Shown: piece by piece, positions 1,936-18,706 of the stretch
Position numbering within the stretch: the stretch's first letter is position 1
How the letters are laid out: the number at the start of each line of letters is the position of its first letter
IMG/VR virus record: IMGVR_UViG_3300023184_000291
Span: 1 to 37,678 of that record
DNA: 37,678 nt
Source of the DNA: a virus
Direction: 5' to 3' (one strand)
Position numbers and translations under genes: made by a program
The notes under the pieces: model-generated
Seen by the model: only the letters and a program-made list of their open reading frames with translations
Database searches by the model: none
What the model was told of the DNA's origin: nothing

Positions 1936-3797
1936 ACCAATGTCACCTGAATGCAAGCTGATACTACGGTGGGCGCTTGCGCGATGCTCGCGCTTGCCTT
2001 CGTTAGCGTCGGGAGGACGGTTAGGATCGAACCGGAGGTGACGCGGAAGCTTGCGGAAAGGGTATAGCGCCCGGTGCCGCCGGTCGTGCCGGAAAGCTGC
2101 GAAGCTACCTTAGTGCCTTCCGTTACTAGGCCGCCCGAATCGAAAGCGAATTGTCCGACCGCGAGCGCGCCCGAGGCAATCGCGGTGACGTTCATAACCG
2201 TCGAAGTCGCCGTGATCGCGCTTGAGCTTGCGCTAGTCGCGACGCTCGTTACATATACGCCGTTGCCGCCCGTCGTCCCGGAAGTTTGGGAAACAATCGT
2301 GGTACCGGTTGCGGCGCCCGTGCCGGAAATTACGTCGCCGGCCGATAGGTAGCCGGTAATGCTGCTGACCGTGAGATTCGTCCCGGCGCCGGTCGCCGTG
2401 AACGTCGAGCCTATCGCCGCCGTGAACTGCGCGGTCGGCGTGTTCGTGTTAACGATGAATAGCGAAACGATTTCCGCCCACGCGCCTAGCGCGTTAATCC
2501 CCGCATAGAAGCGGCTAGCGAAGACGGTAGAGCCTATCCGCGCCCGCTGGCCGCCGTCTGCCCCAGCGAAAGCCGCGATGACTGCCGCCTGAATTAGGGC
2601 GGTTGCGTTGCTAGGGACTAGAGCGCTATTCGCGATGTTGATTTGAAAAACGAAAGGCAACGAAGACGGAATTTGATAGACCACCGTGTAAGGTTGTCCG
2701 GGTGGCCCGACTTGCACATCAGAGGAGTAAATTGTGACCGTCGTATTGCCGGTATAGTACGGGCAACCGGGGGACTTCTTTTTCCATATCGCGGTCGCGA
2801 CCGCCGTTGTCGTCCCGCCGACTGCCGCGACGTAAAGCGCGTTCGCCCCGAGCGTGACGCCGCCGAGGTTCATCGTTGTTGATCCTACCGTCTGGCTATT
2901 GTTGACCGTCCAGCTAGTGCCAGAGCCGCCGGTAATCACCGTTCCTGCGGAGACCGAGATTCCGGAGCCGCTAGAGCCGGTGACGCCTTGCCCTATAGCA
3001 ATCGTCCCGCTCGTAACGCTGCTCACGGTTAGCGTCGTCGCGGAGATACTGCCGATGATGACAGCATCCGGCGTGAAGGCGACGGGATAGGCGTTAGGAT
3101 TATCTACAACGAAAGCGTCGAGAACGCCCGGAACGGAGAGGACCGATCCCCAGACAGAATCCACGAAACCGACCGAGTTAAGCGCGACCGATTGCACGCG
3201 CCGCGCCTCGAAATTGGCGCGGCTTTCGACGGCAGAACCAAGCACGCCGTCCGTTGGGTTATTGATGCTGTCCCACCCGGGAATCGTGCGATAAATCACG
3301 TTGAGCGTATTCGCAGGGCACGGGATAGGGCCGACGAATTGCGCGCCGAACTCAATCGTAACGCTGCCGCCCAGCGGGATAATGCCGCCGGATACCGCAT
3401 AGTAAACGGTTCCGTCCGTCGCGAGCGCAGACGCGCCGCTAGGGATTACGGTTCCTGCGAGCCCGACGCAAAGGCACGACGCAATCGTGGACTGCCCCGG
3501 AAGACGTTGCAGGAAATAAATGCGGGCAATCGCGTCCTGCATGCGGCCGGAGGCATAGGCCGGGTCGATCCCGTTCGCGAGCGCACAGAAATTGTCGTTG
3601 GCGTTGCCGATGCAAGCGGTCTCGCTTTCCGCGATCTGGCCCTGCGGCGTCGGCGCCGTCACCGTTCCGAAATCGAGCGTGGTTTGAAAGGCGGTATTTA
3701 GGTCCGCCTGCACGCCCGCGAGAATGTCTAGCTCCAGCGGCGGAACAAATCCGGTGGGAGTCAGGACGGGAGGAGGTACGCTGGTTGTGAAGGCCAT
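1932..3797 (-). CDS. Baseplate J-like protein carrying three inserted Gly/Thr-rich repeat domains
   Basis: The product has 621 residues. The N-terminal part (about 1-230) matches the baseplate J / gp47-like wedge family: a PPLELDILAGVQADLNTAF start, a PQGQIAESE segment, and the conserved GxVDSVWGSVLSVPGVLDAFV region. In myoviruses this protein links the hub to the outer baseplate. The family fold is interrupted by repeat domains: one at residues ~245-312, and two in tandem at ~463-530 and ~531-595 near the C-terminus. The same repeat occurs in four other virion proteins of this window. The ATG overlaps the stop of the gp25-like gene (TAATG), and its own TGA overlaps the fibre start. Length is greater than usual for the family because of the insertions. 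Confidence 0.88.
   Translation of the reverse strand: MAFTTSVPPPVLTPTGFVPPLELDILAGVQADLNTAFQTTLDFGTVTAPTPQGQIAESETACIGNANDNFCALANGIDPAYASGRMQDAIARIYFLQRLPGQSTIASCLCVGLAGTVIPSGASALATDGTVYYAVSGGIIPLGGSVTIEFGAQFVGPIPCPANTLNVIYRTIPGWDSINNPTDGVLGSAVESRANFEARRVQSVALNSVGFVDSVWGSVLSVPGVLDAFVVDNPNAYPVAFTPDAVIIGSISATTLTVSSVTSGTIAIGQGVTGSSGSGISVSAGTVITGGSGTSWTVNNSQTVGSTTMNLGGVTLGANALYVAAVGGTTTAVATAIWKKKSPGCPYYTGNTTVTIYSSDVQVGPPGQPYTVVYQIPSSLPFVFQINIANSALVPSNATALIQAAVIAAFAGADGGQRARIGSTVFASRFYAGINALGAWAEIVSLFIVNTNTPTAQFTAAIGSTFTATGAGTNLTVSSITGYLSAGDVISGTGAATGTTIVSQTSGTTGGNGVYVTSVATSASSSAITATSTVMNVTAIASGALAVGQFAFDSGGLVTEGTKVASQLSGTTGGTGRYTLSASFRVTSGSILTVLPTLTKASASIAQAPTVVSACIQVTLV
2013..2207 (-). repeat. 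Gly/Thr repeat domain, baseplate J copy C
   Basis: Residues ~531-595 show [16 protein letters not shown], then EGTKVASQLSGTTGGTGRYTL. It is in tandem with copy B at the C-terminal end of the baseplate protein. Confidence 0.75.
2208..2411 (-). repeat. Gly/Thr repeat domain, baseplate J copy B
   Basis: Residues ~463-530 show NLTVSSITGYLSAGDVISG, then SGTTGGNGVYVTSVA. Boundaries are approximate. It is directly followed by copy C. Confidence 0.75.
2862..3065 (-). repeat. Gly/Thr repeat domain, baseplate J copy A
   Basis: Residues ~245-312 of the baseplate protein show the shared pattern: ATTLTVSSV, SGTIAIGQGVTG, then SWTVNNSQTVGSTTM. This copy lacks the usual GTGGxGTY loop and has GGSGTSW instead. 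Confidence 0.7.
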
Positions 3798-4177
3798 TAG
3801 AAGTTCGCCGCCGCGGTTCGCCCGGAGGCGTTCGTGATCTGGACTTGCCCGATTAAAACCCGGTTCTCAAAAGACGTGAAAAAGACTTGTGCGCTCGTGA
3901 CGCCCGGCACGCGCAGCGCGGCCTGCGTGAAGCGCGCCTTCATCAACGGCACGGGAGGGAGCTTGCCGAGTATCTGCTGGAAGTAAGGCACGCCTTGGTC
4001 AATATCATAGGTTAGTTCCCCTTGGAATAGCTTGATCGCGCTCGCAGCATCCTGCGCCTGCGCGTAGGCCGCGGCCTTTAGCGGGGCGCGCGGGTAGACG
4101 GCAGACGCGAGCGCGATGTTGTTAGAGGCGTTTAGGACTAAGTCCCAAGTATCCGGGTCGAGCAACAGAGTGTCCAT
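3797..4177 (-). CDS. gp25/W-like baseplate wedge protein
   Basis: The 126-residue product has the features of small baseplate wedge proteins of contractile tails: QDAASAIKLFQGELTYDIDQGVPYFQQILG, split here as AASAIKLFQGELTYD and GVPYFQQILG, followed by a region with VPGVTSAQVFF. These match the gp25-like family seen next to J proteins. Its role would be to connect the baseplate hub to the sheath and wedge. It sits between the spike gene and the J gene, with one-base TAATG overlaps on both sides, so it is part of the same translationally coupled baseplate block. The assignment rests on family-like sequence and context. Confidence 0.75.
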   Translation of the reverse strand: MDTLLLDPDTWDLVLNASNNIALASAVYPRAPLKAAAYAQAQDAASAIKLFQGELTYDIDQGVPYFQQILGKLPPVPLMKARFTQAALRVPGVTSAQVFFTSFENRVLIGQVQITNASGRTAAANF

Positions 4178-4488
4178 TAGGTAGGAACCTCCGGCGGGTT
4201 AGGGGGATGAGGTGTAGGGGTTATGCCCTGTGTGTAATTGTCGATGACACCGGGCTGATAGACAAAGCCAGTTCCGCCCGCGTCCCAAACATTCTTCGCG
4301 GTCGCGTGGGTGACGATTTCCGCCGCCATTAGCGTGATCTTTCCCGGCTCTAGCTTGATGTACGTCGTTCCGTTATCCGGAGTCAGCATTAGGCTGCCTT
4401 CGGACGATATGATCTGGTTTCCCCACTCGTCGTTCCAAACGATCCCCTCTTGCGAGGTTAGGTCGATATAACGCTTTAGGTCGGCCAT
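4177..4488 (-). CDS. Baseplate spike accessory/tip protein
   Basis: This is a 103-residue protein directly downstream of the gp138-like spike gene and overlapping it by one base. The sequence DLTSQEGIVWNDEWGNQIISSEGSLMLTP alternates short strands (cited here as WNDEWGNQIISSEG and TYIKLEPGKITLMAAEIV). That pattern resembles the beta-helical C-terminal shaft of spike proteins. The last 15 residues are proline-rich (PTPHPPNPPEVPT). A likely reading is that the spike is split into an OB-fold base (the upstream gene) and this shaft or tip. No PAAR or metal-binding cap motif could be confirmed. Confidence 0.55.
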   Translation of the reverse strand: MADLKRYIDLTSQEGIVWNDEWGNQIISSEGSLMLTPDNGTTYIKLEPGKITLMAAEIVTHATAKNVWDAGGTGFVYQPGVIDNYTQGITPTPHPPNPPEVPT

Positions 4489-4910
4489 TAGCTCATCAAT
4501 CCAAAATAGACGCCGTCCGCCGCGTCGTATTTGCGGAACGTCCCGGGGAGCGCCGGGGCGCGGGTATTAGTGACAACTGAAATATCGCGATCAGCGCATA
4601 TCATCATCCCCACGTCTCCGACCGAGGGATCGATGATGAAACCGCCGCCGCCGCCCTGCAAACGGAAGACTGGGAGGTCATGAATAATTCCATGCGGCTG
4701 CCCGGTCCCGATCCCGTCAATTTGCGAGACCAGCGGGTTAACATCCACATAACAGCTTGCAGACGGGCCGCCGCCCGTTACCGCGACCACCTGAACAATC
4801 TTCATCGTAGAGATGCGATTTATCATCTGTTCGATTTGGAACGCGGTTAGGTTGAACGGGCTGTTGGTATTGCTAGGTCCGTCCTGCCCGTAGCCTTCTC
4901 TAACTGCCAT
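4488..4910 (-). CDS. gp138-like baseplate spike protein (OB-fold domain)
   Basis: The 140-residue product resembles the N-terminal domain of phage gp138/gpV-type spikes: IVQVVAVTGGGPSASCYVDV near residue 40, and VFRLQGGGGGFIIDPSVGD near residue 80, followed by GMMICADRDIS. In this family the OB-fold domain trimerises under the hub and carries the membrane-piercing shaft. The protein ends shortly after the OB fold, so the shaft is probably supplied by the next gene. It is separated by one base from the hub gene. Confidence 0.82.
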   Translation of the reverse strand: MAVREGYGQDGPSNTNSPFNLTAFQIEQMINRISTMKIVQVVAVTGGGPSASCYVDVNPLVSQIDGIGTGQPHGIIHDLPVFRLQGGGGGFIIDPSVGDVGMMICADRDISVVTNTRAPALPGTFRKYDAADGVYFGLMS

Positions 4911-4911
4911 A

Positions 4912-6773: not shown

Positions 6774-6776
6774 AGG

Positions 6777-8987
6777 TTAGGTGAGCCCCGTGACTGCGAG
6801 GCCGGCATATCGGCGCCGAATTTCTTCCGCGACCGCTGCGCCGTGCGCCTTCGGGTCGTTCGTTCGCGCGGTGATGTTGATATCGCCTATCTGCACCGTG
6901 ACCGGGCCGCGCCGGTTATCGTTGCTCGCGAAGCCGTTCGCGCTCGCGCTGCCGCGCGCGCCTAGCACCAGCCCCGTGCCGGTCTCCGTCGCGCTGCCAC
7001 CCGGCCGGAACATGTCAAGCACCTGATTCAGGCCGCGGGTCCGGATAATCTCCCCCATACCGATGATATATTTGAGCGTTGCGTCGAGCGCTTCTACGCC
7101 GTCCTTGGCGACAAAATACCCCCCTTTCGCCAGAATTTGGTGCCGTTCATGCGGCGTGCGGGCTTGGTTATACCCGGCGAAATTGCTTTGTTGCGTCACC
7201 TTAAGGCGGTTGGCAATGGACTCTTCTACACTTCCATAATCGCGGAAGAATACGCTAGTAGGCTTGCCGTTCACGTCGTGATCCCTGCCGCGTGTGCGCG
7301 GGCCGGACCAGCTTTTATCCGCAATCACGTTGAAGAGGTTGTTTTTGCCTTGCACGCCCGCGCCGTAATTCGTCTCGACGGCGGCCTGCGCGATCAGTTC
7401 GTCTGCGGTGATGTTGGAGCCGTTTTTCTCGTTATAGGCTGCAACAACCGCCTCGACTTTCGGGCGTAGCGCGGCGACCCAATCAGCCTTGCGCTGCATT
7501 TCGTTCCCGAATATCCCGCCGGGATTCCCTCCGAGGATACCGCCGGAAGCCGAGGCCGGGCCGCCGGGCGCTTCCTTTTCAGGCTCCGGTTTTAATTTGT
7601 CCTTTTCGTCTGCAAAAAGATTGGTGCCGGTGATCGCTTTCCAGATAACGTTCGCGCGGTCAGTGACCCATTTGAAGGACGCGCCGAAAGCGCGCTTCAT
7701 AGCCTCGAATATAACAGGAGCCGCCTTATCGATTGCCGCGCCTAATCCCATGAAAAGCGATAGCCAAAGCTTGCCCATATTGGCGATCAAGGCCTTCCAA
7801 GCTGCCTTGATTTGCCCCGCGTCTCCGAGGAAGAGCGCCGTGAACAGGATCAGCGCCGACGTTATTGTTTTGAATACTTCTATGAACAAATCCTTCATCG
7901 CGAGAAGGATAGGCCCGGCAGTCGGCATGATATAATCAAGAACGCTCTGCACTGCGGCCTTGATCTTTATCCACCCGCCTTCAACGAATTGATAAAATTC
8001 CGCGAAATCCGACTTGCCCGTCTCGTTGTAATCCGACCAATCGCTATAGAGGAGGGCAATCGCGGCGCCGAGCGCGGCAAAGCCTGCAATCGGGCCGCCG
8101 AGCGCGACGCCGATAAGGACGACGCCCGCCGCGACCGCGGCGAAAATCTTTTTCATCTCTTCGGGATGCGACTTCAGCCATAAAATCATTTTCTCTAGGC
8201 GCGCATTGAACCGGGTAATAGACGGTTCAAGCCATTCCATTATGATGCGCCCGAGCTTCTCGAATCCTTGGCTTATCGTGTCTATGCCCGTCGAAATCCG
8301 CTGGCCGGCCTCCGCCTCGCCCTGCGTCGTTTCGTAAAGCGCGGAGTGCTTCAGGATCGCATCAAATTCTTTCGAGGACTTCAACACGAGCTGAATTTGC
8401 GACGGGTCTAGGCCGATGCCGGCGAGGATGCTGGACGCCTGCCGCTTGTCCATGCCCTGCGTCGCGCGGTTAAGGCGAACAAGCGCCTCACCCACCTTCA
8501 AAATTTTCCCGTCACTGCCGACTAGGGAGACGTTTAGGGCGTTGAGGTAGGGGAGGATGCCGGTCGCGCTACCCGGGACTAGGGCGATGTTCGTTAGCAC
8601 CCGGTCTAGGGAGGCCATGCTAGCGGCGGTCCCGGCGGCGCTGCCGCCGACGCTACGGACCGCGCCCTGCCATTTCGATAGCTCGTTGGTAGTCGTGCCC
8701 AGCACCAGCGCCGTGCGCCCTACGGCAGCGCTAGAGGCTGCTACGTCCTCGATAAACGCCTTGAGGCCCCGGCCGCCCGTGAACGCGGCGAAGAGGAGGA
8801 GGACTTGCGTCCGCATCTGGCCGAAGAATGCCGCAGCTTTCTTGCCGCTTTCAGACATGTCTTTAGCGACGCTTTGCGCTTGCGCCTTCGTCTTGACTAA
8901 ATCCGCGGCTGCCTGCTTCTGGCCTTTGGTGAAGCCGGAAGGATCAAGCCCTAGGGTAACGATGAGGCTGTCTACAACAGTCGCCAC
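6777..8987 (-). CDS. Tail tape measure protein with embedded glucosaminidase domain
   Basis: The 736-residue product starts at GTG. Residues 20-60 are coiled-coil-like and rich in Ala, Lys and Gln. A long hydrophobic segment lies at ~282-314 (AAVAAGVVLIGVALGG), with more at ~380-420, as is typical of tape measures that enter the host membrane. Residues ~505-645 resemble a glucosaminidase (FlgJ/PF01832-like) domain, with LIAQAAVETNYGAG (candidate catalytic Glu538), KNNLFNVIADKSW and SVFFRDYGSVEES. This would cleave peptidoglycan during DNA entry. It follows the frameshifted chaperone, the usual order. The C-terminal ~90 residues (PVTVQIGDINITARTND) look like a hub-binding tail. Confidence 0.9.
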   Translation of the reverse strand: MATVVDSLIVTLGLDPSGFTKGQKQAAADLVKTKAQAQSVAKDMSESGKKAAAFFGQMRTQVLLLFAAFTGGRGLKAFIEDVAASSAAVGRTALVLGTTTNELSKWQGAVRSVGGSAAGTAASMASLDRVLTNIALVPGSATGILPYLNALNVSLVGSDGKILKVGEALVRLNRATQGMDKRQASSILAGIGLDPSQIQLVLKSSKEFDAILKHSALYETTQGEAEAGQRISTGIDTISQGFEKLGRIIMEWLEPSITRFNARLEKMILWLKSHPEEMKKIFAAVAAGVVLIGVALGGPIAGFAALGAAIALLYSDWSDYNETGKSDFAEFYQFVEGGWIKIKAAVQSVLDYIMPTAGPILLAMKDLFIEVFKTITSALILFTALFLGDAGQIKAAWKALIANMGKLWLSLFMGLGAAIDKAAPVIFEAMKRAFGASFKWVTDRANVIWKAITGTNLFADEKDKLKPEPEKEAPGGPASASGGILGGNPGGIFGNEMQRKADWVAALRPKVEAVVAAYNEKNGSNITADELIAQAAVETNYGAGVQGKNNLFNVIADKSWSGPRTRGRDHDVNGKPTSVFFRDYGSVEESIANRLKVTQQSNFAGYNQARTPHERHQILAKGGYFVAKDGVEALDATLKYIIGMGEIIRTRGLNQVLDMFRPGGSATETGTGLVLGARGSASANGFASNDNRRGPVTVQIGDINITARTNDPKAHGAAVAEEIRRRYAGLAVTGLT

Positions 8988-8990
8988 GGG

Positions 8991-9613: not shown

Positions 9614-9630
9614 AGTGCCCTCCTCATTAA

Positions 9631-9695
9631 CCGGGCGACGTTGCGCCCGGGGTGTTTTTGATTCTGCGATCTAAAGCGTAGACCGCAGAATCAAA
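9631..9695. promoter_or_regulatory. Two adjacent hairpins between tail tube and chaperone genes
   Basis: The first is a perfect 12-base inverted repeat (9657-9668 with 9684-9695, 15-base loop) that includes the tail tube stop codon. The second is a 7-base GC stem (9631-9637 with 9644-9650). Neither is followed by a T-run on the minus strand, so they are not clear intrinsic terminators. They could stabilise the 3' end of the tube message or attenuate readthrough, giving less chaperone and tape measure than tube and sheath. Confidence 0.6.
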
Positions 9696-10134
9696 TCTGC
9701 AACGGAATCATCTGGTTCCAGACGATCTGGAACGTCTGCGGCTTGAGCGTCTTTGCCGCGTCCGGGATAGGGGTGTATCCCTTGAGATACCCGTTGAGCA
9801 TCGTCCACTTTTTCCCGAGGCTGGGAAGGGTGATGAGCCCTGCCGCCTGATAAACATCGATCAGCGTCTGCTGCGCGAGGAACCAAGTATCGAAGGTGGC
9901 GATGCTAGGCGAGTTCGCCTGTAGCTTGATCGTCTGCTTGATGGGTTGGTAGACCCATCCCGCCGAAAGGATGCCGTCGAGGCCCATCGACTCTTCCAGC
10001 GGCTCTAGCTGGTCAATCGAGAAGATGTCTTCAGCGGAATAGCCCTTGAGCGCAACCGGGACCGTGAAGATGCCCGGGATGGTGATGGTGAAGTTCGCAT
10101 TGGCCGAAGTAATTGAGCCGGGAACGGCGGGCAT
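9691..10134 (-). CDS. Tail tube protein (DUF3277 family)
   Basis: The 147-residue protein starts at the ATG at 10134, preceded by AGGAAGGAAACACT; a longer frame upstream overlaps the sheath gene and lacks a ribosome site. The sequence (ANFTITIPGIFTVPVALKGY, EDIFSIDQLEPLEESMGLDG, ending QTFQIVWNQMIPLQI) follows the DUF3277 pattern. This is the tail tube subunit of this type of myovirus and always follows the DUF3383 sheath. It polymerises inside the sheath to form the DNA conduit. Confidence 0.85.
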   Translation of the reverse strand: MPAVPGSITSANANFTITIPGIFTVPVALKGYSAEDIFSIDQLEPLEESMGLDGILSAGWVYQPIKQTIKLQANSPSIATFDTWFLAQQTLIDVYQAAGLITLPSLGKKWTMLNGYLKGYTPIPDAAKTLKPQTFQIVWNQMIPLQI

Positions 10135-10148
10135 AGTGTTTCCTTCCT

Positions 10149-11873
10149 TTACTGAAGTTCGATGCTGGCCAGCGAGATATACTGAATCGCGCCCGGATCG
10201 CAGTACCAGAAATTGCAAGGCGGCGAAGAGCGGGCCGTGCGGGTGGCTGCAACGGCCGGCAGGACTTGGAAGTAATACCCGGTCGCATAGAGCGCGCCCG
10301 AGATATCTATGCCCGCTTGCGCGTTCGCTTCCGCGATCTGGAGCGCGGTGAGGACGACGCCCGGAGTGAAGGCGCCGAAGTTAAGCCCGGCCTTAATCGC
10401 GTCGCTAACCGCCGCCTCGATCAACGCATAGCCGGCTGGATTGTACGGGACGGAACGCGACTGCGTTAGCAGGACAACGAGGGAAAGCTGGAGGCTATTG
10501 TTCAACCAAATCTGGTTAATGTAGCTATCCGCCCAGACGAAGATGCCGGACACCGAACCGGGACCGAAGAACCGGAAGCCGCTGGCCGCGGTCGCGTAAG
10601 CGCCATAGAAGTTGTAACCGTTCGCAATCAGATTATTCGCGATGGTTAGGTCGGTCACATTCGGAGTAATGCCAGACTGTGACTTAAACTTGTAGGTGAT
10701 GCGCCCGTTCGTCTGCGCGAAGTCGATAGAGGCGGTCGCCCCGAGGACGAAGGCATTGAGATATATGCCGGTCGGATCGTAAATCAGCATCGTGCCGGAG
10801 ATTCCGGCCGCCGTGATCAGATACCCGAGCGAGGACGTTGCCGGGTTGGTCGTCGTCGGGTTGGCGTCCGTATCCGAACAGACGTACATCCATCGGTTAT
10901 TCTGAAGCCCATTCCAAGTCGCGAAGGCGAGCTTGACGGTATTGCCGCTGCCGCCGTCCGGGTCGAACGTCGTCATGAACGTCGCCCAGTTCTGCTGGAC
11001 AGCAACAAGAGCCGTCATGAAGGCGGCAGGGACCGCGAGCGCGGCGCCTTGGCTAAGGACGGCGCCCGTGGCCGACGTGAGATAGATGAGCGGCGCGAGC
11101 GTGCCGGAAGCGAAGGCGACGGTGGACGGGGCACCGGTAATGCCAGAGGTGATGACGAAGGCACCGGAAACGCTATCGTAGCTCACGACAACGGCGGTTG
11201 CCTTCGCCGTGATCGTCGTGCTGCTAGCCGTCTGCGACGTATCGACGGTATAGGTGCCCGTGCCGCCCGTGCCGGTCCCGCGCGCCGTGATTTTGGTGCC
11301 CGCCGTAATGCCGGAGCCGGAAAGCGTCTGGCCGACCGCGAGCGCGCCGGAGCCAACCGCCGTGACGGTCAGCGTGGTAGTCGCAATTGATCCCGTAACG
11401 CTCGCCTGCGTCGGCTGCGTCGCGTTCAATGATGTATTGATAATCGACGCGGCGTTGGAATAGCTGGTGCAGCCGGAGAGGCTGCACGATGCCGTGGTGT
11501 GGGTGTAACCGTCCATGACGATCGTCAAGCTGCCGGTGAACGCGCCCATCGCGGCAAGGGTGATTCCCGTAACCGCGCCGCCGCGAGTATAGGCAGCAAC
11601 CGCCGTCTGGTTGTACTGGGCGAAGAAAAGGTTGCCGGGTTTGACGTTCGAGTTGTCGAAGCCGGCAAAATAGATCGCGGCGTTTGCGGCTTCCGCGCTA
11701 CCCGCGCCGAAATAGGCCGCAACGCTCGCCGCGGTCGCGAACGACTGGGCGACGCCGATAGGAACCTGAGTCCCGTTTGTCAGCATCATGCCGTTGAGCG
11801 TGAGGCCGGTGCCGCCGGCAGATAGGACTTGCGGATTGACCGCAACAATGGCACTTGCCGGAATCGTCGCCAT
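10149..11873 (-). CDS. Tail sheath protein (DUF3383) with an inserted Gly/Thr repeat domain
   Basis: The 574-residue product starts [20 protein letters not shown] and continues [19 protein letters not shown] and [19 protein letters not shown]. This is the N-terminus of the DUF3383 sheath family. The C-terminal part ([34 protein letters not shown]) fits the domain that packs on the tail tube. Residues ~158-225 hold one copy of the repeat domain shared with other virion proteins, so this sheath would carry an extra outward or inter-subunit domain. A short Cys-containing loop ([10 protein letters not shown]) lies at ~129. The sheath contracts on host contact. It is followed by the tail tube gene after 14 bases. 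Confidence 0.88.
11199..11402 (-). repeat. Gly/Thr repeat domain, sheath copy
   Basis: Residues ~158-225 of the sheath contain [18 protein letters not shown], then [20 protein letters not shown]. This is the clearest copy of the repeat and defines its pattern: T(L/M)TVTAVxSGxLxVGQxLSG, a variable loop, GTGGxGTYTV, then SQTVxS. Confidence 0.85.
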
Positions 11874-11885
11874 ATTCTTCGTCTC

Positions 11886-12629
11886 CTATTCGAGCGGTAT
11901 TAAAGTAATGTCCAGAACATCAGAGAACTGGAGCGGGACTTTTAGGGTCTGGTTAGCCTGCAACCGCACTTCAACGATGTAACGATTCTCGAACTGCTGC
12001 GCCTCGTTGATGAACGGGCCTTGACGCGGATCGTCCGCGTAGAACGGACAAACGATATTTGGAGCGAATCCTTGTGCGACGTTCGCGGCGGAAAAATAAT
12101 CGACTCCAATTTGATCTCGCAAGATGGTGGAAATCGTCTGCGAATTATCGCCGCTATTCGGCCCGTGAACGTCTATCTGGACTAGAAAGTTGGTGTCTTG
12201 CTCTAACGTCGCGACGCCCGCCGATAGCGTCCTGCTCGCAACGGTTTGGCTTGGGGTGATCGTATAGGTGCCGATGCCGCCCGGAGTCCCGGTTAGCTGC
12301 GCCACGACCTTAGTGCCGTCCGTTACGCCCGTTCCAAACACGCCGCTTCCCGCTTCCAGAATGCCCGGATAGTTCGCGTCCTTCGCGGTTATCGTCATCA
12401 CCGTCGCGGCAATCGACCCGGTAAACACCGCGTCGATAAATTCATCCATGTTCGTCGTTAACCGCGTCTTATTTATCGGCCAGAACACGACAAAATCAAC
12501 TTGGGCCGGTTCCGGAACGCGGTTTATCTGCCCCTGCCTAACCGGCGTTCCGGCCGGCAACATTGCGAGAAGAGCGGCGCGCAACGAAACGTATATTTGG
12601 CGCTCATTAGGAGTCACGCCAAAGCTCAT
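11886..12629 (-). CDS. Neck/tail terminator protein (LIC_12616-like) split by a Gly/Thr repeat domain
   Basis: The 247-residue product has an N-terminal half (QIYVSLRAALLAMLPAGTPV, VDFVVFWPINKTRLTTNMDE) and a C-terminal half (NFLVQIDVHGPNSGDNSQTI, RDQIGVDYFSAAN, ending VPLQFSDVLDITLIPLE). Both are characteristic of a myovirus neck protein family. Residues ~70-139, exactly between the halves, are one copy of the shared repeat domain, so the insertion point is sharp. The family likely closes the top of the tail next to the connector. The ATG overlaps the stop of the upstream gene. It lies directly before the sheath gene, the usual position. Confidence 0.8.
   Translation of the reverse strand: MSFGVTPNERQIYVSLRAALLAMLPAGTPVRQGQINRVPEPAQVDFVVFWPINKTRLTTNMDEFIDAVFTGSIAATVMTITAKDANYPGILEAGSGVFGTGVTDGTKVVAQLTGTPGGIGTYTITPSQTVASRTLSAGVATLEQDTNFLVQIDVHGPNSGDNSQTISTILRDQIGVDYFSAANVAQGFAPNIVCPFYADDPRQGPFINEAQQFENRYIVEVRLQANQTLKVPLQFSDVLDITLIPLE
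12213..12422 (-). repeat. Gly/Thr repeat domain, neck protein copy
   Basis: Residues ~70-139 contain GSIAATVMTITA, then DGTKVVAQLTGTPGGIGTYT and PSQTVASRTLSAG. The conserved family sequence resumes immediately after it. Confidence 0.82.
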
Positions 12630-13213
12630 ACGTAATTGACCGTGAGGTCCGCCGCGCCGCCCCCATCCGCGGAGATAGCGATGAGGCCCTGCGAGAATTG
12701 AGAGCCGTTGAGACCGCTAGGAAGCGCGCCTAGCGTTGCCGTGGTGTAGAGCCCGATGGGACGGCTCACATCCCAAGCCGTTTGCACGCCCGACTGGGAG
12801 CCGGAGGAGTTGATGCTGTTGGTCCCGGCGATTGCGTGGGCTGCCGTATCCGCGACCTGAAAACTATTCGCGGTCAGGCCGGTAGCGCTTACATAAACAG
12901 TCGTCCCAGCGGTCAGGCCGGTTGCCAGCGCGCCCGTGGTCGTGAGCTTGAGCGCGCCACCCGCAACGAAGGGATGTCCGGTCCACGAGATGACGCAAGG
13001 CGACGCAATCGTCATTGTGACGACGCTGCTAATTCCGTCGTACAGACCGAGCGTGCTAGTCGTGCCCGCGGTGTTGACGCTGCCGCCCAAGAACACGCCT
13101 AGCGCAGACTTCACCTGAGTATAGGTGCTGGTCGCGATATGAGCAAAGAGCGACCCGCTAAAGAAAACGGCGATGGCGTTCGCGAGCGTGCTGGAGAGAT
13201 TAGGGAAGCTCAT
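12626..13213 (-). CDS. Virion-associated protein with a beta-rich module
   Basis: The 195-residue product starts [20 protein letters not shown]. The middle holds a module of the kind LKLTTTGALATGLTAGTTVY followed by VSATGLTANSFQVADTAA. That module is common in phage tail and fibre proteins and is different from the Gly/Thr repeat described elsewhere in this window. The C-terminus ends ADGGGAADLTVNYV. Its place between small neck genes suggests a minor structural protein or small tail-collar fibre. It overlaps both neighbours (14 bases upstream, 4 bases downstream). Exact function is unknown. Confidence 0.55.
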   Translation of the reverse strand: MSFPNLSSTLANAIAVFFSGSLFAHIATSTYTQVKSALGVFLGGSVNTAGTTSTLGLYDGISSVVTMTIASPCVISWTGHPFVAGGALKLTTTGALATGLTAGTTVYVSATGLTANSFQVADTAAHAIAGTNSINSSGSQSGVQTAWDVSRPIGLYTTATLGALPSGLNGSQFSQGLIAISADGGGAADLTVNYV

Positions 13214-13388
13214 TTGTCCTCGCTAAAGCGCCTGCGGCTTCCGCGCACCGGATAGAAGCCGCCGCGTAAATGGGGGTGAGAATATCCATGCGGCGCCAGC
13301 TCGCGTCGCGAGCCAATTTCAGCAATAGCTGTGCGCGATCTAGCAGTCGAAACGCCTCGATTGTGTTTGCCGTAAGATCGATCATCAT
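13200..13388 (-). CDS. Small hypothetical neck-region protein
   Basis: The 62-residue product starts [20 protein letters not shown]. The ATG at 13388 overlaps the TGA of the upstream gene as ATGA; a longer upstream start would lie inside that gene. The sequence is predicted to be mostly helical ([17 protein letters not shown]), without recognisable motifs. Tight overlaps on both sides and codon use like the neighbours support a real gene. Function is unknown. Confidence 0.6.
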
Positions 13389-13969
13389 GAGCCGTTTTGC
13401 AGGGTGCAGAGCGCGGCAACCCAATTCTGCTTCCATTGCTCCGCAACCACCGCGACTAGCCAAACATCTCCGCGCGTATCGGTTATCAGGTCGCCACCCT
13501 TAACCCACGACCTGACCACGCCATCCACCTCTCCATAAAGGTAAATCTTGCGGCGCGTGCCTTGGACGTTCAGCGAGTCCATTTGCATAAGGTCGCGGTA
13601 CTGCATCGGCTGAACTTGCCCCTGCGCTAGCAGGGATGTAGTCATCGCCTCGCTCGCGACCGTCTGCGACTCATTCACCGAATAGGTGCCGGCGCCGCCG
13701 GTCGTGCCGGTTAGCTGCCCGGCAATTATCGTGCCCGAGATTAGGCCGGCGCCCGCGAGCGTCTGCCCGGGCAGGAGCTTCCCGGAAGCGACCGCAGAGA
13801 CGGTGAGGACCGTCCCCGCAATAGATGCCGTAATGCCGCCCGGCGTGGCGTAGGCCGGTACTGCAACGCCCGCGTCGTCGTCCGCGCTCCCTACCGAGAC
13901 GCGCACGTTGAGAAGCTCTCGCGGATTGACTACCGCGACGGCGCCGGAAACTATCGCGGCTAGGTTCAA
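13385..13969 (-). CDS. Neck/tail-completion-type protein with a Gly/Thr repeat domain
   Basis: The 194-residue product has an N-terminal helix-strand region ([20 protein letters not shown]) and a C-terminal barrel-like region ([40 protein letters not shown]). These resemble small phage neck or tail-attachment proteins. Residues ~46-113 are one copy of the shared repeat domain, inserted between these parts. It lies between the decoration/fibre-like gene and the neck terminator, in line with a connector role. Without the insert the protein would be about 125 residues, a usual length for such proteins. Confidence 0.6.
13631..13834 (-). repeat. Gly/Thr repeat domain, tail-completion protein copy
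   Basis: Residues ~46-113 contain [21 protein letters not shown], then [20 protein letters not shown]. The pattern closely matches the sheath copy. Confidence 0.82.
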
Positions 13970-13972
13970 TGG

Positions 13973-14998
13973 TTAGCCCCGGATTTCGTAGTTGTAAACC
14001 GAGGTGTCTAGGGCGAGCGCAGCGATATTGAATCCCGTCTGCGGCGTGATCGTCGCAACCGCCGGAGCGGAGACGCCGGGAGTGCCGCCGACTGTCTTTA
14101 GCGTCGCGGCAATCTGAGAACCGGCGGTGACGCGCGAATCCGCAACCGTGACCGGCGTCGCGCCGTTCGCGGTGAACGTCCCGACCTTCGGAAAATATCC
14201 TTGCTCGATGCCGACCATGGTGACGGTCGCCGTGCCGTCGCGCGTGATCAGGAAGCGCGCCCAGCTATTTGCCGGAATCACCGTGACGATTGATGGCGTG
14301 ACGCCGACGCCACCAGCAATGGTGATCGGGAAATTTCCGTTGTTGACGTAGCGATATTCGACCGCGGCGTTGATCGTGCCAAGCGCGGGATTGCCTGCGA
14401 TGATCGCTACAGCGGTATCCGTGGTATCCGTTCGCGCGGCAGTCTGCGCCGTGCGCGTAGTGATGCCGCCGTTAATGCCTGCCGCGGTGATCGTCGCGGC
14501 GCCCGTGCCGCCGAGCGCAGTAGCGACCGGAGAGGAAATCGCGGGCGCGACGCGCAACGGAACCGTGCTTTCGTGCGTCAACGTGACGGTGGGCGAGGCA
14601 ACCGTTCCGCCGACCGTGCCATAGTAATTGCCGACCGAGAACGGCGGAACAATGATTGTTCCGGGAAGCGTAACGCCCGTTCCTGCCGCAAGCGTTTCGG
14701 CAAAGCCGGTATTGTTCTTGATCCGAATGTCGAACGTCTGTCCAGAGACGAAATTCGCGCCGAGCGCAGCGACGATGGCGGCAGCGGTCGCGGTCGTATC
14801 CGTGAATGCGACAGTCGGGCCGGTTCGCGCGATCTGGCCGCCAACTAGAGCGGCAGCGGTAAGCACGCCGTCACCGGCCGTGGTGATACCAGTTTCCACG
14901 ACGTTGCCGCTGGAACCGCCTGCAATCTCGTTGAGGATCGCGGCGCTGAGAAGGCCGCCGCCAACAAAGAAATCGATATTTACAACGGGAGCGGCCAT
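13973..14998 (-). CDS. Beta-rich structural protein, possible head fibre or decoration
   Basis: The 341-residue product starts MAAPVVNIDFFVGGGLLSAA. It contains two related beta-rich units (~35-150 and ~165-270), each with a T-x-A/D-x-T-D-T-T motif (FTDTTATAAAIVAAL and RTDTTDTAVAIIAG) followed by an N-x-G-F/N segment and a GGVGVT-type turn. The C-terminus (FNIAALALDTSVYNYEIRG) resembles the end of phage head-fibre and decoration proteins. It is probably displayed on the virion surface near the connector. An RBS GGAGAT lies seven bases before the ATG. Unit boundaries and function are inferred from sequence pattern only. Confidence 0.55.
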   Translation of the reverse strand: MAAPVVNIDFFVGGGLLSAAILNEIAGGSSGNVVETGITTAGDGVLTAAALVGGQIARTGPTVAFTDTTATAAAIVAALGANFVSGQTFDIRIKNNTGFAETLAAGTGVTLPGTIIVPPFSVGNYYGTVGGTVASPTVTLTHESTVPLRVAPAISSPVATALGGTGAATITAAGINGGITTRTAQTAARTDTTDTAVAIIAGNPALGTINAAVEYRYVNNGNFPITIAGGVGVTPSIVTVIPANSWARFLITRDGTATVTMVGIEQGYFPKVGTFTANGATPVTVADSRVTAGSQIAATLKTVGGTPGVSAPAVATITPQTGFNIAALALDTSVYNYEIRG

Positions 14999-15010
14999 CG
15001 GTGTATCTCC

Positions 15011-15553
15011 TTATTTGACGAGTTTTGTAACGTTGCGTTGCATGGTGCCGGTATCGATCAGCGGCTTAGTTGGGGCGCCGTAGTTAGTCTTGCCGGCAGC
15101 GACGCGCGCGGCAGCCTCTCCCACGGTCTTGCCAGTCACTCTTAGGCTAGTATCGTTGGCTTTCATGCCGCGCAGCATGATCGTGATTGGGCTAAGAGCG
15201 GGCGAAAACATTTCAGTGATCGACTCTTGGACTTCGCCAATAATCTCGTCACCTAACACTTCAAGAGCTGCATTCGCGTCGAAGTCGTATCGCTTCAGCA
15301 GGACCGCGAGGTTAGGCCCCCACTTCTCGCTATTCTTGTTGATCGCGTTGCGGAAGAAAGGCCGCGGCGGGATTTTGGCCCGAGGCGCGCCATACTCGTT
15401 GATCGCCGCGATCATCGGCGTTGACGTGCCGTCCGGTTCCGTCGATCCCGCCATGAAGCCGACGTTGAGCGTCGCCGCTTTCGAGACCTTCGCGCTTAAC
15501 TGCTTCAAATAGGCGTCGAGCTTATCGCCGCCCTTGATCGTTGCGGTGGCCAT
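15011..15553 (-). CDS. HK97 gp10-like / phage morphogenesis protein
   Basis: The 180-residue product has an N-terminus with GGDKLDAYLKQLSAKVSKAA and a conserved block LNVGFMAGSTEPDGTSTP ... AAINEYGAPRAKIPPRPFFR. This matches small neck proteins that join head and tail (gp10/gpG-type). A second helix-rich part ends with GTMQRNVTKLVK, a common C-terminal pattern (PLIDTG) in this group. It follows the DUF4054 connector gene without a gap and probably completes the neck. Confidence 0.75.
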   Translation of the reverse strand: MATATIKGGDKLDAYLKQLSAKVSKAATLNVGFMAGSTEPDGTSTPMIAAINEYGAPRAKIPPRPFFRNAINKNSEKWGPNLAVLLKRYDFDANAALEVLGDEIIGEVQESITEMFSPALSPITIMLRGMKANDTSLRVTGKTVGEAAARVAAGKTNYGAPTKPLIDTGTMQRNVTKLVK

Positions 15554-16042
15554 TTAGTAACCGCGCCACCCCGCGCCACGCGCAGGGAAGAGGCCGCGCG
15601 CGCCCGGGAAGCCACCGGCCTGCAATTGGCCCGGGATATAGCGCATGGTGCGATACTGCGCAGTCGCGCGCCAGAATGAAAAGCCATACTTTGTCTGCAT
15701 GAAGAACGCCGACTGTTCCGAGGGAGGCGCCCCGGAATCGAAAGCGACGGTTACAGAGCCTTCCGTTGCCGACGCGATACGCCCCACCGGGACGCTCGCA
15801 TCCTTCGCGGCGCCCGGCGTCTGGTCTCCCGCGCTCTGGCTATAGATCGCCGCGATATGCGCGACGAGCATGTTGAGCAGCATCGACTGGATCGCCGTCG
15901 TGCTGCATGGCGACGTGCCGTCGTTCCTCCAATAAATCGTCGCCTCATTGAAGTATTCGGCGGCAGTCGGCTCTTGCACGGCCGAAAACTCCGGATACCT
16001 CAATATCCAAGCGGCGTAGTCGAAGGTGACGGCGGCGCTCAT
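15554..16042 (-). CDS. Head-tail connector protein (DUF4054)
   Basis: The 162-residue product has the DUF4054 pattern: VTFDYAAWILRYPEFSAVQE, AAEYFNEATIYWRNDGTSPC, a helix with LLNMLVAHIAAIY, then GRIASATEGSVTVAFDSGAP and FFMQTKYGFSFWRATAQYR. The family acts as the adaptor below the portal and closes the capsid. The C-terminus is Gly/Arg-rich (GARGLFPARGAGWRGY). It lies one base after the upstream stop and abuts the next gene. Confidence 0.85.
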   Translation of the reverse strand: MSAAVTFDYAAWILRYPEFSAVQEPTAAEYFNEATIYWRNDGTSPCSTTAIQSMLLNMLVAHIAAIYSQSAGDQTPGAAKDASVPVGRIASATEGSVTVAFDSGAPPSEQSAFFMQTKYGFSFWRATAQYRTMRYIPGQLQAGGFPGARGLFPARGAGWRGY

Positions 16043-16043
16043 G

Positions 16044-16652
16044 TTAGGCCGCGGCCGGCATGCGCTCTAGAGAGATGGGCGCCATGTTTTCCGGAGTGCG
16101 CGGCGCGCGCGGATCGTTCTCCATGTCCAGCGGCTCCATGTTGCTCCGGCGCTTCTCGTTTTCCTTCGCGCGGTTCATCGCGCGCTCGAAAGACGACTCC
16201 GCGAAAATGAGCTGATTGACGACGAAAGCCGAACGTTCATTGTCCCGCATCCACGCATCAAGCGACTCCTTATCGACGCCCTCCGTGAAGGCATAGCCCC
16301 AGATAATCCGACAGCGCGGCGCCTCATTGAGAGGATGGGAAACGCCGTGAATAAAGATCATCTCGCCCTGCGGCTCCGCAACGCGAACATCTTTGTTGTT
16401 GCCCTGCCGGTCCAATTCCGAAATCGTGACCATGCGGAAGTTCCGGAGCTTCATGCCCATCGGCAGCCGCGAGGCGACAACCACCTTGTCGCCTCCCGAG
16501 GACGGCGCCGCGCTCGCACCGCTGGCGAGCGTCGCGGCGTTCTCACCGCGCGGCCCGACCACGGCAAGACGTTCCTGAAGCGCGCGTTCGCGCTCCATGC
16601 TTTCGTTGAGCGCGGTTTCCATCTGGGCGCGCGTCATTTTCGGATCGACCAC
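16044..16652 (-). CDS. Hypothetical head-associated protein
   Basis: The 202-residue product starts at GTG, directly after the capsid gene stop. The N-terminus is a coiled-coil-like helix (MTRAQMETALNESMERERAL), followed by an Ala/Ser linker. A compact beta-rich core follows (MKLRNFRMVTISELDRQGNN, EMIFIHGVSHPLNEAPRCRI), then a charged C-terminal tail. No catalytic motif is visible. The position between the capsid and connector genes suggests a head completion or decoration role, but the family is not recognised. Confidence 0.6.
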   Translation of the reverse strand: MVDPKMTRAQMETALNESMERERALQERLAVVGPRGENAATLASGASAAPSSGGDKVVVASRLPMGMKLRNFRMVTISELDRQGNNKDVRVAEPQGEMIFIHGVSHPLNEAPRCRIIWGYAFTEGVDKESLDAWMRDNERSAFVVNQLIFAESSFERAMNRAKENEKRRSNMEPLDMENDPRAPRTPENMAPISLERMPAAA

Positions 16653-17744
16653 TTAGACCCCCAACATCTGCTGGAAGCCCACCGGCATGCGGATGATGGT
16701 GCCCCACGTTCCGCTCATCTGCTTCTGTTTGTAGCCGGAAGCTTCGCGCACAATCGGGAACGTGCGCAGCTTTTCGGTGAAGGAACAGAACGCCGACTGC
16801 TGGCCCTCGACGCTATCGGCCATAAGCTGAACGAGGTTTCCGGCCGGGTTGCCGTTGTTGTTCGCCGCCGTCTGCGTCCCGAACTGCGGGATGGTGACGA
16901 TGCGAAGGCTGGGGAAGTTCTCCTTGAGCAGCGCCTTGACGTTGAGGCCGAAGCTGTTGGTGAACTGGAACGCGGTGGCCGGTCCCGGTCCAAGGGCAAG
17001 CGTCATCTTCGTATCCGCGTCCACGAGGCCGGCGTTGGCGACGACCAGCGCGTTGAAAAGCGCGAGGATGTCGTTGTAGACTTCATTCGCCGTCGCGTTG
17101 GGCGTGCCGCCCGACGTGTACCACGTAACGCCGCCTGCGGCCTTCGTCGCCGGAGTGATCGCCGCCGGCAGATTCGGGTCGTTCATGATCCCGTAGTTCT
17201 GGAGGCCGCGCACGCCGTAGGCGTAGGTGAGGTTGGAGTTGACGTTGAGGTTGTTCGCGGCGGCCTTGTCGAGTTCCGAGACCCAATTCAGCTTGGCGAG
17301 GCTCGCACGCGCAAGCTCGCGGTCGCCGTACATGACGAAGGTCTGGAAGTTGTAGGATTGCCGCTGCGGCCAGTTGGCGTTTGCGCGCGACATGCCGTTG
17401 TTGGACCAGTCGCTATACGAGCTAGTCTGGCCGGTATGCTCGACCACCGGGAAGGCGGCGGTATCCGTCACCCAATCGCCGGTCTTCTTCTCGCCCAGAT
17501 ACTCCGCGATCTTGAGCGGCGAGAAAAGCACCTCGTAGATCGATGGGTCCACGTAGGTCGTGAGCATCGCCATCACGGCCGAGTTGGGGTCTGTCGTCAA
17601 GCTGGGGTAGGCGTCCATCGCGAGGTTGAAGTTTCGGCGAAACTCGTCCGGCAGATAGGAACGCGCGCCCTCGATGATAACGCCGCGCTCCTCGAAAAAC
17701 CCGCGCTCTGCGGCGAACCGGGTCTGTGCTTCGGTGAAATTCAT
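16653..17744 (-). CDS. Major capsid protein (DUF2184, HK97-like fold)
   Basis: The 363-residue product contains DUF2184 features: FLPDEFRRNFN-like SYLPDEFRRNFNLAMDAYP near residue 30, WVTDTAAFPVVEHTGQTSSY near 92, a WPQRQSYNFQTFVMYGDREL stretch, GVRGLQNYGIMNDPNLPAAI near 190, and a C-terminus GTIIRMPVGFQQMLGV. This family forms the HK97-fold shell in phages with the same DUF1073/DUF2213 neighbours. The start is an ATG with AAGGAAAAG upstream. There is no N-terminal scaffold domain, so the scaffold must be separate; the DUF2213 protein upstream is the candidate. Confidence 0.92.
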   Translation of the reverse strand: MNFTEAQTRFAAERGFFEERGVIIEGARSYLPDEFRRNFNLAMDAYPSLTTDPNSAVMAMLTTYVDPSIYEVLFSPLKIAEYLGEKKTGDWVTDTAAFPVVEHTGQTSSYSDWSNNGMSRANANWPQRQSYNFQTFVMYGDRELARASLAKLNWVSELDKAAANNLNVNSNLTYAYGVRGLQNYGIMNDPNLPAAITPATKAAGGVTWYTSGGTPNATANEVYNDILALFNALVVANAGLVDADTKMTLALGPGPATAFQFTNSFGLNVKALLKENFPSLRIVTIPQFGTQTAANNNGNPAGNLVQLMADSVEGQQSAFCSFTEKLRTFPIVREASGYKQKQMSGTWGTIIRMPVGFQQMLGV

Positions 17745-17767
17745 TTTCTTTTCCTTGTCCTTTCCGG

Positions 17768-18706
17768 TTAGCCGAGCGGCTGGCTAGACATCTTGCAGAC
17801 TTCGCCCGGCAGGGCGCTGCTCATGAACTTCCACTTGGTCGCAACGGTCAGCGTGCCGGTGATCGACGTGCTAGTGACCGTTTGTGTCAAGTCCACAATG
17901 TAGGTTCCGAGACCACCAACGCCCGTACCGAGCGCGGTGATCGTGGTCGCGGTCGTAACGCCGCCGCCGCCCGCACCGGAGAGGATAGAGCCAATGCCGA
18001 ACGAGCCGGTGAGGCCGGAGACGGCAGTGAACAGGCCATAGGTGCCCGACAGGGTCGTGCCGGCCGCGACGTTCTGCTCCGGGATGCTCACCGAGTAGAC
18101 GCCGACGCCGCCGGTCGTGCCGCTGATCTGCGAGACAACCTTAGTGCCAGAGGCCGCGCCGACCGTGATCAGCACGCCCGGGTAGAGCGTGCCCGACCCG
18201 ACCGCGGTAACGGTCATGATGTCGTTCGCGATGCCGCCCGTAACCGAGAAGGTCTGGGCGGCGATCGTGCCCGTCGCGACGCCGGTTGCGGCATCCGGGC
18301 GAATCTTGCCGGTCGCCATCTCTGTGTAGACGGTGCCGCCCGGCACGGCCTGCGTCAGGCCGTCGTTCTTCACCCAGAAGTCGGTTCCGGAGAAGAGGCC
18401 CATAGCGAAGCCCGCCGGGATAGCCAGCGAGGCGTCGAGCAGGAAGGTGGTGTTGAGGCCCTGCTGTTCCGAGGCGACGAAGCCGGTCGGGGCGCCGACG
18501 CCGAAGTTGGAGACCTGAGATGGGTAGCCGTCGCCGTCCGCCGGGGCAGTCGCCCAAGCAAAGCGGCCAATGACGCACCCGGAAGGCCCGGACACGAAAC
18601 CCTGCGGCCCCGCGTCCACGCTGAAAAGCGGGTTGGTGGAAGCGAAGTCGCCAGCAATGCCGAATGCCGGGGTGCTGCCCACTGCGGTCTGAAAACCGTT
18701 AGCCAT
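17768..18706 (-). CDS. Capsid decoration/cement-like protein with two Gly/Thr repeat domains
   Basis: The 312-residue product starts MANGFQTAVGSTPAFGIAGD and has GPQGFVSGPSGCVIGRFAWA and GFAMGLFSGTDFWVKN. These are typical of structural cement proteins encoded directly before DUF2184 capsid genes. Its C-terminal half is largely two copies of the shared repeat domain (~153-221 and ~224-285). The cement sequence resumes with TKWKFMSSALPGEVCKMS at the end, so the repeats look inserted. It would stabilise the capsid from the outside. The gene has an RBS GGAGAT before the ATG. Confidence 0.78.
   Translation of the reverse strand: MANGFQTAVGSTPAFGIAGDFASTNPLFSVDAGPQGFVSGPSGCVIGRFAWATAPADGDGYPSQVSNFGVGAPTGFVASEQQGLNTTFLLDASLAIPAGFAMGLFSGTDFWVKNDGLTQAVPGGTVYTEMATGKIRPDAATGVATGTIAAQTFSVTGGIANDIMTVTAVGSGTLYPGVLITVGAASGTKVVSQISGTTGGVGVYSVSIPEQNVAAGTTLSGTYGLFTAVSGLTGSFGIGSILSGAGGGGVTTATTITALGTGVGGLGTYIVDLTQTVTSTSITGTLTVATKWKFMSSALPGEVCKMSSQPLG
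17852..18037 (-). repeat. Gly/Thr repeat domain, cement protein copy 2
   Basis: Residues ~224-285 contain GSFGIGSILSGAG, then TTITALGTGVGGLGTYIVDL and TQTVTSTSITG. It follows copy 1 almost directly. Confidence 0.75.
18044..18250 (-). repeat. Gly/Thr repeat domain, cement protein copy 1
   Basis: Residues ~153-221 contain [20 protein letters not shown], then GTKVVSQISGTTGGVGVYSV and QNVAAGTTLSG. Confidence 0.82.

What the first reader, a model, noticed from the sequence alone, without database searches (positions are those of the whole stretch)
2013..18250. One Gly/Thr-rich domain inserted eight times in five different virion proteins
Copies of about 65 residues with the pattern TLTVTAVxSGxLxVGQxLSG ... 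GTGGxGTYTV ... SQTVxS occur in the baseplate J protein (three), sheath, neck terminator, tail-completion protein and cement protein (two). In the neck protein and sheath they split known family sequences cleanly. The proteins are otherwise unrelated. This looks like a mobile or strongly selected display domain spread over head, neck, sheath and baseplate. Possible roles are glycan binding, stabilisation or cell-surface adhesion. The pattern and places are seen; function is inferred.
Basis: partly seen in the sequence, partly recalled or inferred. Interest (0 to 1): 0.75.

Follow-up and report, generated by a model that had tools for sequence, protein, structure and literature searches.

The report
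Mobile surface domain in phage virions
A small, almost uncharged protein module with no entry in the two curated protein-domain databases searched (Pfam, NCBIfam) has been slotted into many unrelated outer-shell proteins of bacterial viruses, eight times in this one virus, and comes and goes between close relatives, probably as an optional surface coat or weak adhesive.

Summary
Five virion proteins of this contractile-tailed phage carry eight copies of one ~61-residue Gly/Ser/Thr-rich domain: baseplate J protein (3), sheath, neck terminator, collar/head-closure-like protein, cement protein (2). Profiles built without a protein's own copies recover seven clearly (E 7e-5 to 8e-20) and one weakly (M2, 2e-3). 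The copies are insertions: sheath relatives carry 0-3 tandem copies at one site, an 82%-identical sheath lacks it, and the sheath-core tree needs at least 8 gains or losses. AlphaFold2 gives an independent small all-beta fold (pLDDT 96.5), with the same strands alone and inside the sheath.

The family is far wider than the finding. It also sits inside gp10A-type major capsid proteins (14 of 72 relatives), a lambda-gpD-type decoration protein 90% identical to this sheath copy, a tail tube, a four-copy head-closure protein, and fibres. Pfam and NCBIfam have no model; two PHROGs contain it unnamed. In five bacterial genomes all copies lie on one contig, at the prophage.

It behaves like the promiscuous phage Ig-like domains but matches no Ig family by sequence. 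Surface display is well supported; adhesion is inferred. Only 3.7% of residues are charged, so a stealth or spacer coat is a serious rival.

The parts
2859..3050 (-). domain copy J1, inside the baseplate J-like protein (1932-3797)
   Evidence: leave-one-protein-out profile 18.9 bits, 6.6e-5; the stretch between window residues 238 and 324 has almost no counterpart in gp88 of 9zd7 (residues 330 to 344)
2202..2393 (-). domain copy J2, near the C-terminal end of the same protein
   Evidence: 35.4 bits, 4.6e-10
2013..2213 (-). domain copy J3, in tandem with J2
   Evidence: 45.0 bits, 4.5e-13
1932..3797 (-). baseplate J-like wedge protein, 621 aa (about 426 without the copies; E217 gp44 is 417)
   Evidence: phrog_6 4.4e-36; E217 gp44 8env_J 5.8e-13
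11199..11390 (-). domain copy S1, inside the tail sheath protein
   Evidence: 62.6 bits, 1.6e-18; 0-3 tandem copies here in relatives; AlphaFold2 strands 155-225
10149..11873 (-). tail sheath protein, 574 aa (about 510 without the copy; E217 gp31 is 504)
   Evidence: PF11863 4.6e-114; phrog_205; Z 34 to Pa193 and E217 sheaths
12213..12416 (-). domain copy T1, inside the neck terminator (gateway) protein
   Evidence: 53.8 bits, 8e-16; 0/1/2 copies in relatives
11886..12629 (-). neck terminator protein, 247 aa (about 179 without the copy; E217 gateway gp29 is 183)
   Evidence: PF23961 7.9e-15; NF047498 3.3e-10
13631..13825 (-). domain copy C1, inside the collar/head-closure-like protein
   Evidence: 66.8 bits, 8e-20; present in 7 of 65 relatives
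13385..13969 (-). collar/head-closure-like protein, 194 aa (about 129 without the copy)
   Evidence: phrog_1912 5.8e-22
18035..18241 (-). domain copy M1, in the cement/minor capsid protein
   Evidence: 40.5 bits, 1.3e-11
17849..18049 (-). domain copy M2, in tandem with M1, divergent
   Evidence: 14.2 bits, 2.1e-3, weakest copy; full family profile finds two copies in this protein
17768..18706 (-). cement/minor capsid protein, 312 aa
   Evidence: PF23982 XM1 gp53 2.7e-18
16653..17744 (-). position of the major capsid protein of this phage type; carries no copy
   Evidence: homologues in the relatives carry no copy either (0 of 51); role assigned from gene order and E217
9691..10218 (-). tail tube protein; carries no copy
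   Evidence: PF22764 E217 gp32 3.7e-20, which is the tube protein; 0 of 79 relatives carry a copy

Best explanation
SHOWN: one compact ~61-residue all-beta domain, nearly free of charge (3.7% D/E/K/R, 47.6% G/S/T), is inserted into virion proteins that lie on the outside of the particle. It is optional, can be repeated in tandem at one site, and in this phage group never occurs in the tube, the major capsid protein or the DUF2213 protein. It is found in phages of several kinds and in prophages, hardly ever elsewhere in bacterial genomes. LIKELY: first and last long strands bring the ends together, so a loop can accept the domain without disturbing the host fold, and phage recombination moves it between phages and between genes. 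INFERRED: selection keeps it because a particle carrying hundreds of copies (E217, for example, has 204 sheath and 180 cement subunits) gains a surface property as a whole, most likely weak, reversible, multivalent adhesion to cell-envelope or extracellular polysaccharide before specific receptor binding, as proposed for the phage Ig-like domains.
For: Insertion: 0 (17), 1 (27), 2 (27) or 3 (7) copies at the same sheath site; L036 (1 copy) and L059 (none) are 82% identical over 499 residues; insert-free relatives lack window sheath residues 154-224 (all but 184-187), and Acetobacteraceae prophage sheaths lack 91-276, the larger optional domain around it; gp10A-type capsid proteins L245 and L283 are 80% identical except for a clean insert. 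Independent fold: pLDDT 96.5 alone, the same four strand blocks inside the sheath. Mobility: nearest relative of S1 is a lambda-gpD-type decoration protein (90% identity); 97 of 339 copies have their nearest relative in another protein; at least 8 gains/losses on the sheath-core tree. Phage-bound: one contig each in five bacterial genomes, 2 of 190 and 6 of 99 genomes. Surface: present in sheath, cement, neck and baseplate, absent from tube 0/79 and capsid 0/51; additional sheath domains lie away from the tube (PMC9230969). Composition. Adhesion by analogy: PMC9230969 and PMC10385173.
Against: No binding partner or binding site was identified; the most conserved positions are glycines and one tyrosine, which fits a structural scaffold as well as a binding site. 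Near-absence of charge and of Trp (0.1%) is unusual for carbohydrate-binding surfaces. Surface exposure is inferred from E217 and sheath literature, since the coordinates of the models were not available for a burial calculation. The co-occurrence of copies across proteins of one genome is strong but confounded by relatedness.
Confidence: 0.5

Rival explanations
1. Cement: the domain touches neighbouring subunits and stiffens capsid and tail, so its benefit is particle stability.
For: The best solved-structure match is a 124-residue chain of Arthrobacter phage Bridgette (8eci_1; 34% identity, TM 0.70, Z 7.3), a size that fits a decoration protein; the domain is common in cement and decoration proteins.
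Against: One interface could hardly be shared by sheath, gateway, baseplate and capsid subunits of quite different geometry; copy number varies 0-3 at one site among relatives; the 8eci match is E 0.028 and Z under 8, and its role was not verified.
Confidence: 0.2
2. Stealth or spacer coat: a neutral, hydroxyl-rich surface that keeps the particle from sticking to charged minerals, debris or polymers, or shields underlying sites.
For: Charged residues 3.7% against 9-18% in the host proteins, G/S/T near 48%; many different virion proteins coated in the same phage.
Against: The profile search favours copies of similar composition, so part of the bias is ascertainment; the conserved glycines and tyrosine go beyond what a mere spacer needs; no environmental test was possible.
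Confidence: 0.15
3. Neutral or selfish passenger: the domain is easily accepted in loops and spreads by recombination without benefit.
For: Frequent gain and loss; copies differ widely, about 40% identity on average.
Against: The fold and its glycines are conserved in 244 copies under 70% identical; absent from internal proteins; 71% of copies have their nearest relative at the same protein, so copies are kept for long times.
Confidence: 0.12
4. The segments are integral parts of each family fold, or chance resemblance of Gly/Thr-rich loops.
For: M2 and J1 are weak.
Against: Leave-one-out profiles and shuffles, filled/empty pairs, independent confident fold, insert-free solved sheath aligned with Z 34.
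Confidence: 0.02

Closest known systems
Phage Ig-like domains (Fraser et al. 2006, cited in PMC9230969 and PMC10385173)
   Same: Small beta domains, optional, exchanged between phages, attached to or inserted in many virion proteins, thought to bind cell surfaces weakly
   Different: No Ig-type Pfam family is matched by sequence; about 61 residues with four strand blocks in the model; inserted mainly in internal loops of sheath, neck, cement and capsid proteins; almost no charge
PHROG 38233 (tail fiber protein) and PHROG 21413 (unknown function)
   Same: Both profiles contain this domain (around positions 550-625 and 395-470) and match the window copies
   Different: They are whole-protein families; the domain is not recognised or named, and the match to sheath or capsid proteins says nothing about their role
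Additional domains of tail sheath proteins (types 2 and 3 of Evseev et al. 2022, PMC9230969)
   Same: Extra domains inserted in the middle of a conserved sheath core, away from the tube
   Different: Here the insert lies within such an extra domain (nested), in 0-3 tandem copies, and the same module occurs in other virion proteins of the same phage
E1 FCCH-like phage module (PF16190), small beta barrel
   Same: Small beta barrel also found in phage proteins; weak structural resemblance (Z about 5)
   Different: No profile-profile similarity (probability 0.4%); occurs in separate places in the one chain mapped that has both
Pseudomonas phage E217 / Vibrio phage XM1 virion
   Same: Homologous sheath, baseplate J and cement; neck protein lengths match once the inserts are subtracted
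   Different: E217 sheath, gateway, collar and J protein have the insert-free lengths

Membership tests
Phage Ig-like domains | sequence match to an Ig-type family (Big, I-set, FN3, Ig) | tested here: not met
   none at E up to 1 in the five window proteins; none among 42 further carrier proteins at E up to 1e-3
Phage Ig-like domains | Ig beta-sandwich fold | tested here: inconclusive
   no Ig domain was recognised among the titles of the 50 best structural matches, but absence there excludes nothing; coordinates not available
Phage Ig-like domains | optional occurrence in many unrelated virion proteins | tested here: met
Phage Ig-like domains | dispensable for growth in the laboratory | not testable with these tools
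   natural absence in close relatives only
E1 FCCH-like module | sequence profile similarity | tested here: not met
   hhalign probability 0.4% against the 7 FCCH-like segments found in the loci; Pfam E1_FCCH found in 2 of 42 carriers, at separate positions in the one chain where both were mapped (L133)
E1 FCCH-like module | shared fold | tested here: inconclusive
   Z about 5 with Uba1 FCCH regions, under the level that separates kin from common arrangements
Transposon-like or intein-like mobile element | own mobility or splicing machinery | tested here: not met
   61-residue units hold no other gene; no intein or recombinase family in the carrier proteins
Transposon-like or intein-like mobile element | target-site duplication or terminal repeats | tested here: inconclusive
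   none evident by eye in L036 against L059, flanking linkers differ; one site only
Domain covered by PHROG 38233/21413 | match to the domain part of the profile | tested here: met

The most novel reading that the evidence does not exclude
Tailed phages of different morphologies share a single interchangeable surface module that coats head, neck, tail and baseplate alike, so that the particle's outer surface chemistry is set by one exchangeable domain rather than by each protein separately.
Probability: 0.2. Interest if true: 0.8.

Novelty: new variant of a known kind. Interest (0 to 1): 0.62.

Why it matters
It adds a domain family with no model in Pfam or NCBIfam to the small list of promiscuous phage surface domains, and shows it inside proteins not usually thought to tolerate insertions: sheath, neck terminator, head closure, major capsid protein. 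It explains size differences between homologous virion proteins, warns that PHROG hits to 'tail fiber' can come from this module alone, and marks natural insertion sites in capsid and tail. Close relatives with and without copies make the old question of what such extra domains do for a phage directly testable in soil bacteria.

Tried and rejected
Chance Gly/Thr-rich resemblance: rejected by leave-one-protein-out profiles and shuffles. BLAST with a copy found nothing in 50,697 phage records (S1) or only three Sinorhizobium phage records (T1); the low-complexity filter probably masks it, so all counting was done with HMMER. Homology with the FCCH-like module of the neighbouring protein 12626-13213: no support. 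Recent spread inside this genome: same-genome copies in different proteins are only slightly more alike than permuted ones (0.420 against 0.406, 0 of 300). Coordinated gain across virion proteins: Fisher p down to 4e-11, but too few independent pairs on the tree, so not claimed. No solved chain matches the domain profile and none gave a credible match to S1; among solved structures by fold only 8eci_1 stands out, and its role could not be verified in the papers held. A first IQ-TREE run did not finish; FastTree was used. No paper held prints the six motif strings tried as protein sequence.
Full report
OBSERVATION. The window is a virus record of 37,678 bases with a contractile-tail gene set on the - strand: sheath PF11863, neck terminator PF23961, cement PF23982, tube PF22764, baseplate J by phrog_6. 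Eight segments of 64-69 residues lie in five proteins. Profiles built without a protein's own copies still find them, from 8e-20 (C1) to 6.6e-5 (J1) and 2.1e-3 (M2); among 1000 composition-preserving shuffles per copy the best score was 16.5 bits. Seven copies are secure; M2 is secure mainly through the later, larger family profile. Subtracting the copies gives sheath 510, J 426, terminator 179 and collar-like 129 residues, against 504, 417, 183 and 132 for E217 gp31, gp44, gp29 and gp28 (lengths).

FAMILY. An iterated profile found 443 copies in 309 open frames of 150 loci; after adding bacterial contigs, 489 copies long enough to align, with 346 frames carrying the domain. A set of 244 copies are less than 70% identical to one another. 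They contain 3.7% charged residues and 47.6% Gly/Ser/Thr, against 9-18% charged in the host proteins. Among the most conserved are G15, G20, G40, G42, G45 and Y47 of the profile. Pfam and NCBIfam have no model; PHROG 21413 and 38233 contain it within longer profiles.

INSERTION. Sheath relatives with both flanks hold 0 (17), 1 (27), 2 (27) or 3 (7) copies, in tandem with a period of about 61 residues, between window residues 150 and 228. Terminators hold 0/1/2 (22/52/4 by the C-terminal query), J 0-3, cement 0-3, collar-like proteins 0/1 (58/7); capsid 0/51, DUF2213 protein 0/42, tube 0/79. These are not prevalences: one of six search patterns lies in the insert, some proteins are cut by contig ends, and some loci are near-duplicates. 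Filled and empty sites occur in close relatives: sheaths L036 and L059, 82% over 499 residues; cement L060 and L072, 85%. The spans of the 40 listed sheath matches in phage records (at most about 1,470 nt, two pieces) leave no room for it. Insert-free relatives lack window residues 154-183 and 188-224; Acetobacteraceae prophage sheaths lack 91-276, so the domain is nested in a larger optional domain, probably E217 domain A, which the small pyocin sheath also lacks (correspondence inferred). The tree of 120 sheath cores, copies masked, needs at least 8 changes of presence (5 forced by well supported branches) and 23 of copy number.

OTHER CARRIERS. The domain lies inside lambda-gpD-type decoration proteins (L141, L130, L212), a gp10A-type major capsid protein (L149), a Phage_tube_2 tail tube (L132), head-closure Hc3 proteins (four copies in L097), and proteins matching SU10 adaptor, E217-gp24-type cement and tail fibres. 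Of 72 complete relatives of the L149 capsid protein 14 carry it and 58 do not; L245 and L283 are 80% identical with a clean insert. All 8 complete tube relatives carry it. If that tube is not covered by a sheath, as I expect but did not test, this agrees with the rule that exposed proteins carry the domain. Predicted viral structures show it in further capsid, fibre and lyase proteins and in two Indivirus proteins.

MOVEMENT. 242 of 339 copies have their nearest relative in the same protein family (59 expected), so most are inherited in place; 97 do not. The window's sheath copy is closest to the decoration protein of L141, 90% in protein and 74% in DNA; L141 was found with S1 as query, which favours such matches. 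In five bacterial genomes all copies lie on one contig each, at the prophage that brought the genome in; in samples of the class and genus only 2 of 190 and 6 of 99 genomes have any, a few of them in fibre-like or secreted proteins not examined further.

FOLD. The isolated domain is predicted with pLDDT 96.5 and pTM 0.83 from 96 copies, strands 2-20, 28-30, 39-43, 51-69. In the whole sheath (pLDDT 87.5, 47 sequences) the strands 155-176, 182-185, 193-198, 206-225 are the same, shifted by about 155. The best solved match is 8eci_1 of Arthrobacter phage Bridgette, 124 residues, 34% identity, TM 0.70, E 0.028, Z 7.3, followed by translation-factor, E1 and F1-ATPase barrels. The sheath core matches the E217 and Pa193 sheaths with Z 33-34, whose 504-residue length leaves no room for the insert.

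MECHANISM. Shown: optional, nested, repeatable insertion of one independent domain, phage-bound, in virion proteins. Well supported: exposure, from the set of carriers and from published sheath architecture (PMC9230969, PMC10329688). Inferred: benefit by weak multivalent adhesion, following proposals for Ig-like domains (PMC9230969, PMC10385173); E217 has 204 sheath and 180 cement subunits (PMC10329688), so even weak binding would add up. The lack of charge and of aromatic residues makes stealth or spacer coating a serious rival, and the decoration-sized solved match keeps cementing alive.

VERDICT.

Noticed in passing
window 24881-26959 (-): The terminase large subunit contains an intein-like insert (about residues 383-651, from YCVDPATPVL to AAGYASHNS) with a GYLSAAFDGEGTLS motif like a homing endonuclease; NCBIfam's best match is an intein-containing protein (7e-17, residues 383-649) and residues 335-656 match mycobacteriophage terminases.
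   Followed up: partly
window 12626-13213 (-): A protein between terminator and collar-like genes carries a phage FCCH-like small module (SWTGHPFVAGGALKLTTTGALATGLTAGTTVYVSATGLTANSFQVA); five copies of that module occur in L133.
   Followed up: partly
window 13973-14998 (-): A protein next to the collar-like gene ends in a K1-lyase C-terminal domain (PF24146, 1.4e-7) and matches phrog_673, unexpected at this position.
   Followed up: no
window 1-1956 (-): A Gly/Thr-rich fibre-like protein, open at the left edge, begins with a signal-peptide-like stretch (MKTLTKILATIFIVAGIIAPARA).
   Followed up: no
window 31982-32854 (+): A short-chain dehydrogenase (PF00106, 5e-21) encoded among the + strand genes, possibly an auxiliary metabolic gene.
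   Followed up: no
window 6777-8987 (-): The tape-measure-like protein carries a glucosaminidase (FlgJ-type) domain near its C-terminus (PF01832, 4.5e-9).
   Followed up: no
L175-L211: Acetobacteraceae prophages have sheaths of about 380-410 residues that lack the whole outer domain (window residues 91-276), a minimal sheath as in pyocins.
   Followed up: partly
L225, L227: Single copies in genomes of the Bradyrhizobium group lie in large proteins with secretion-signal-like starts, perhaps outside prophages.
   Followed up: no
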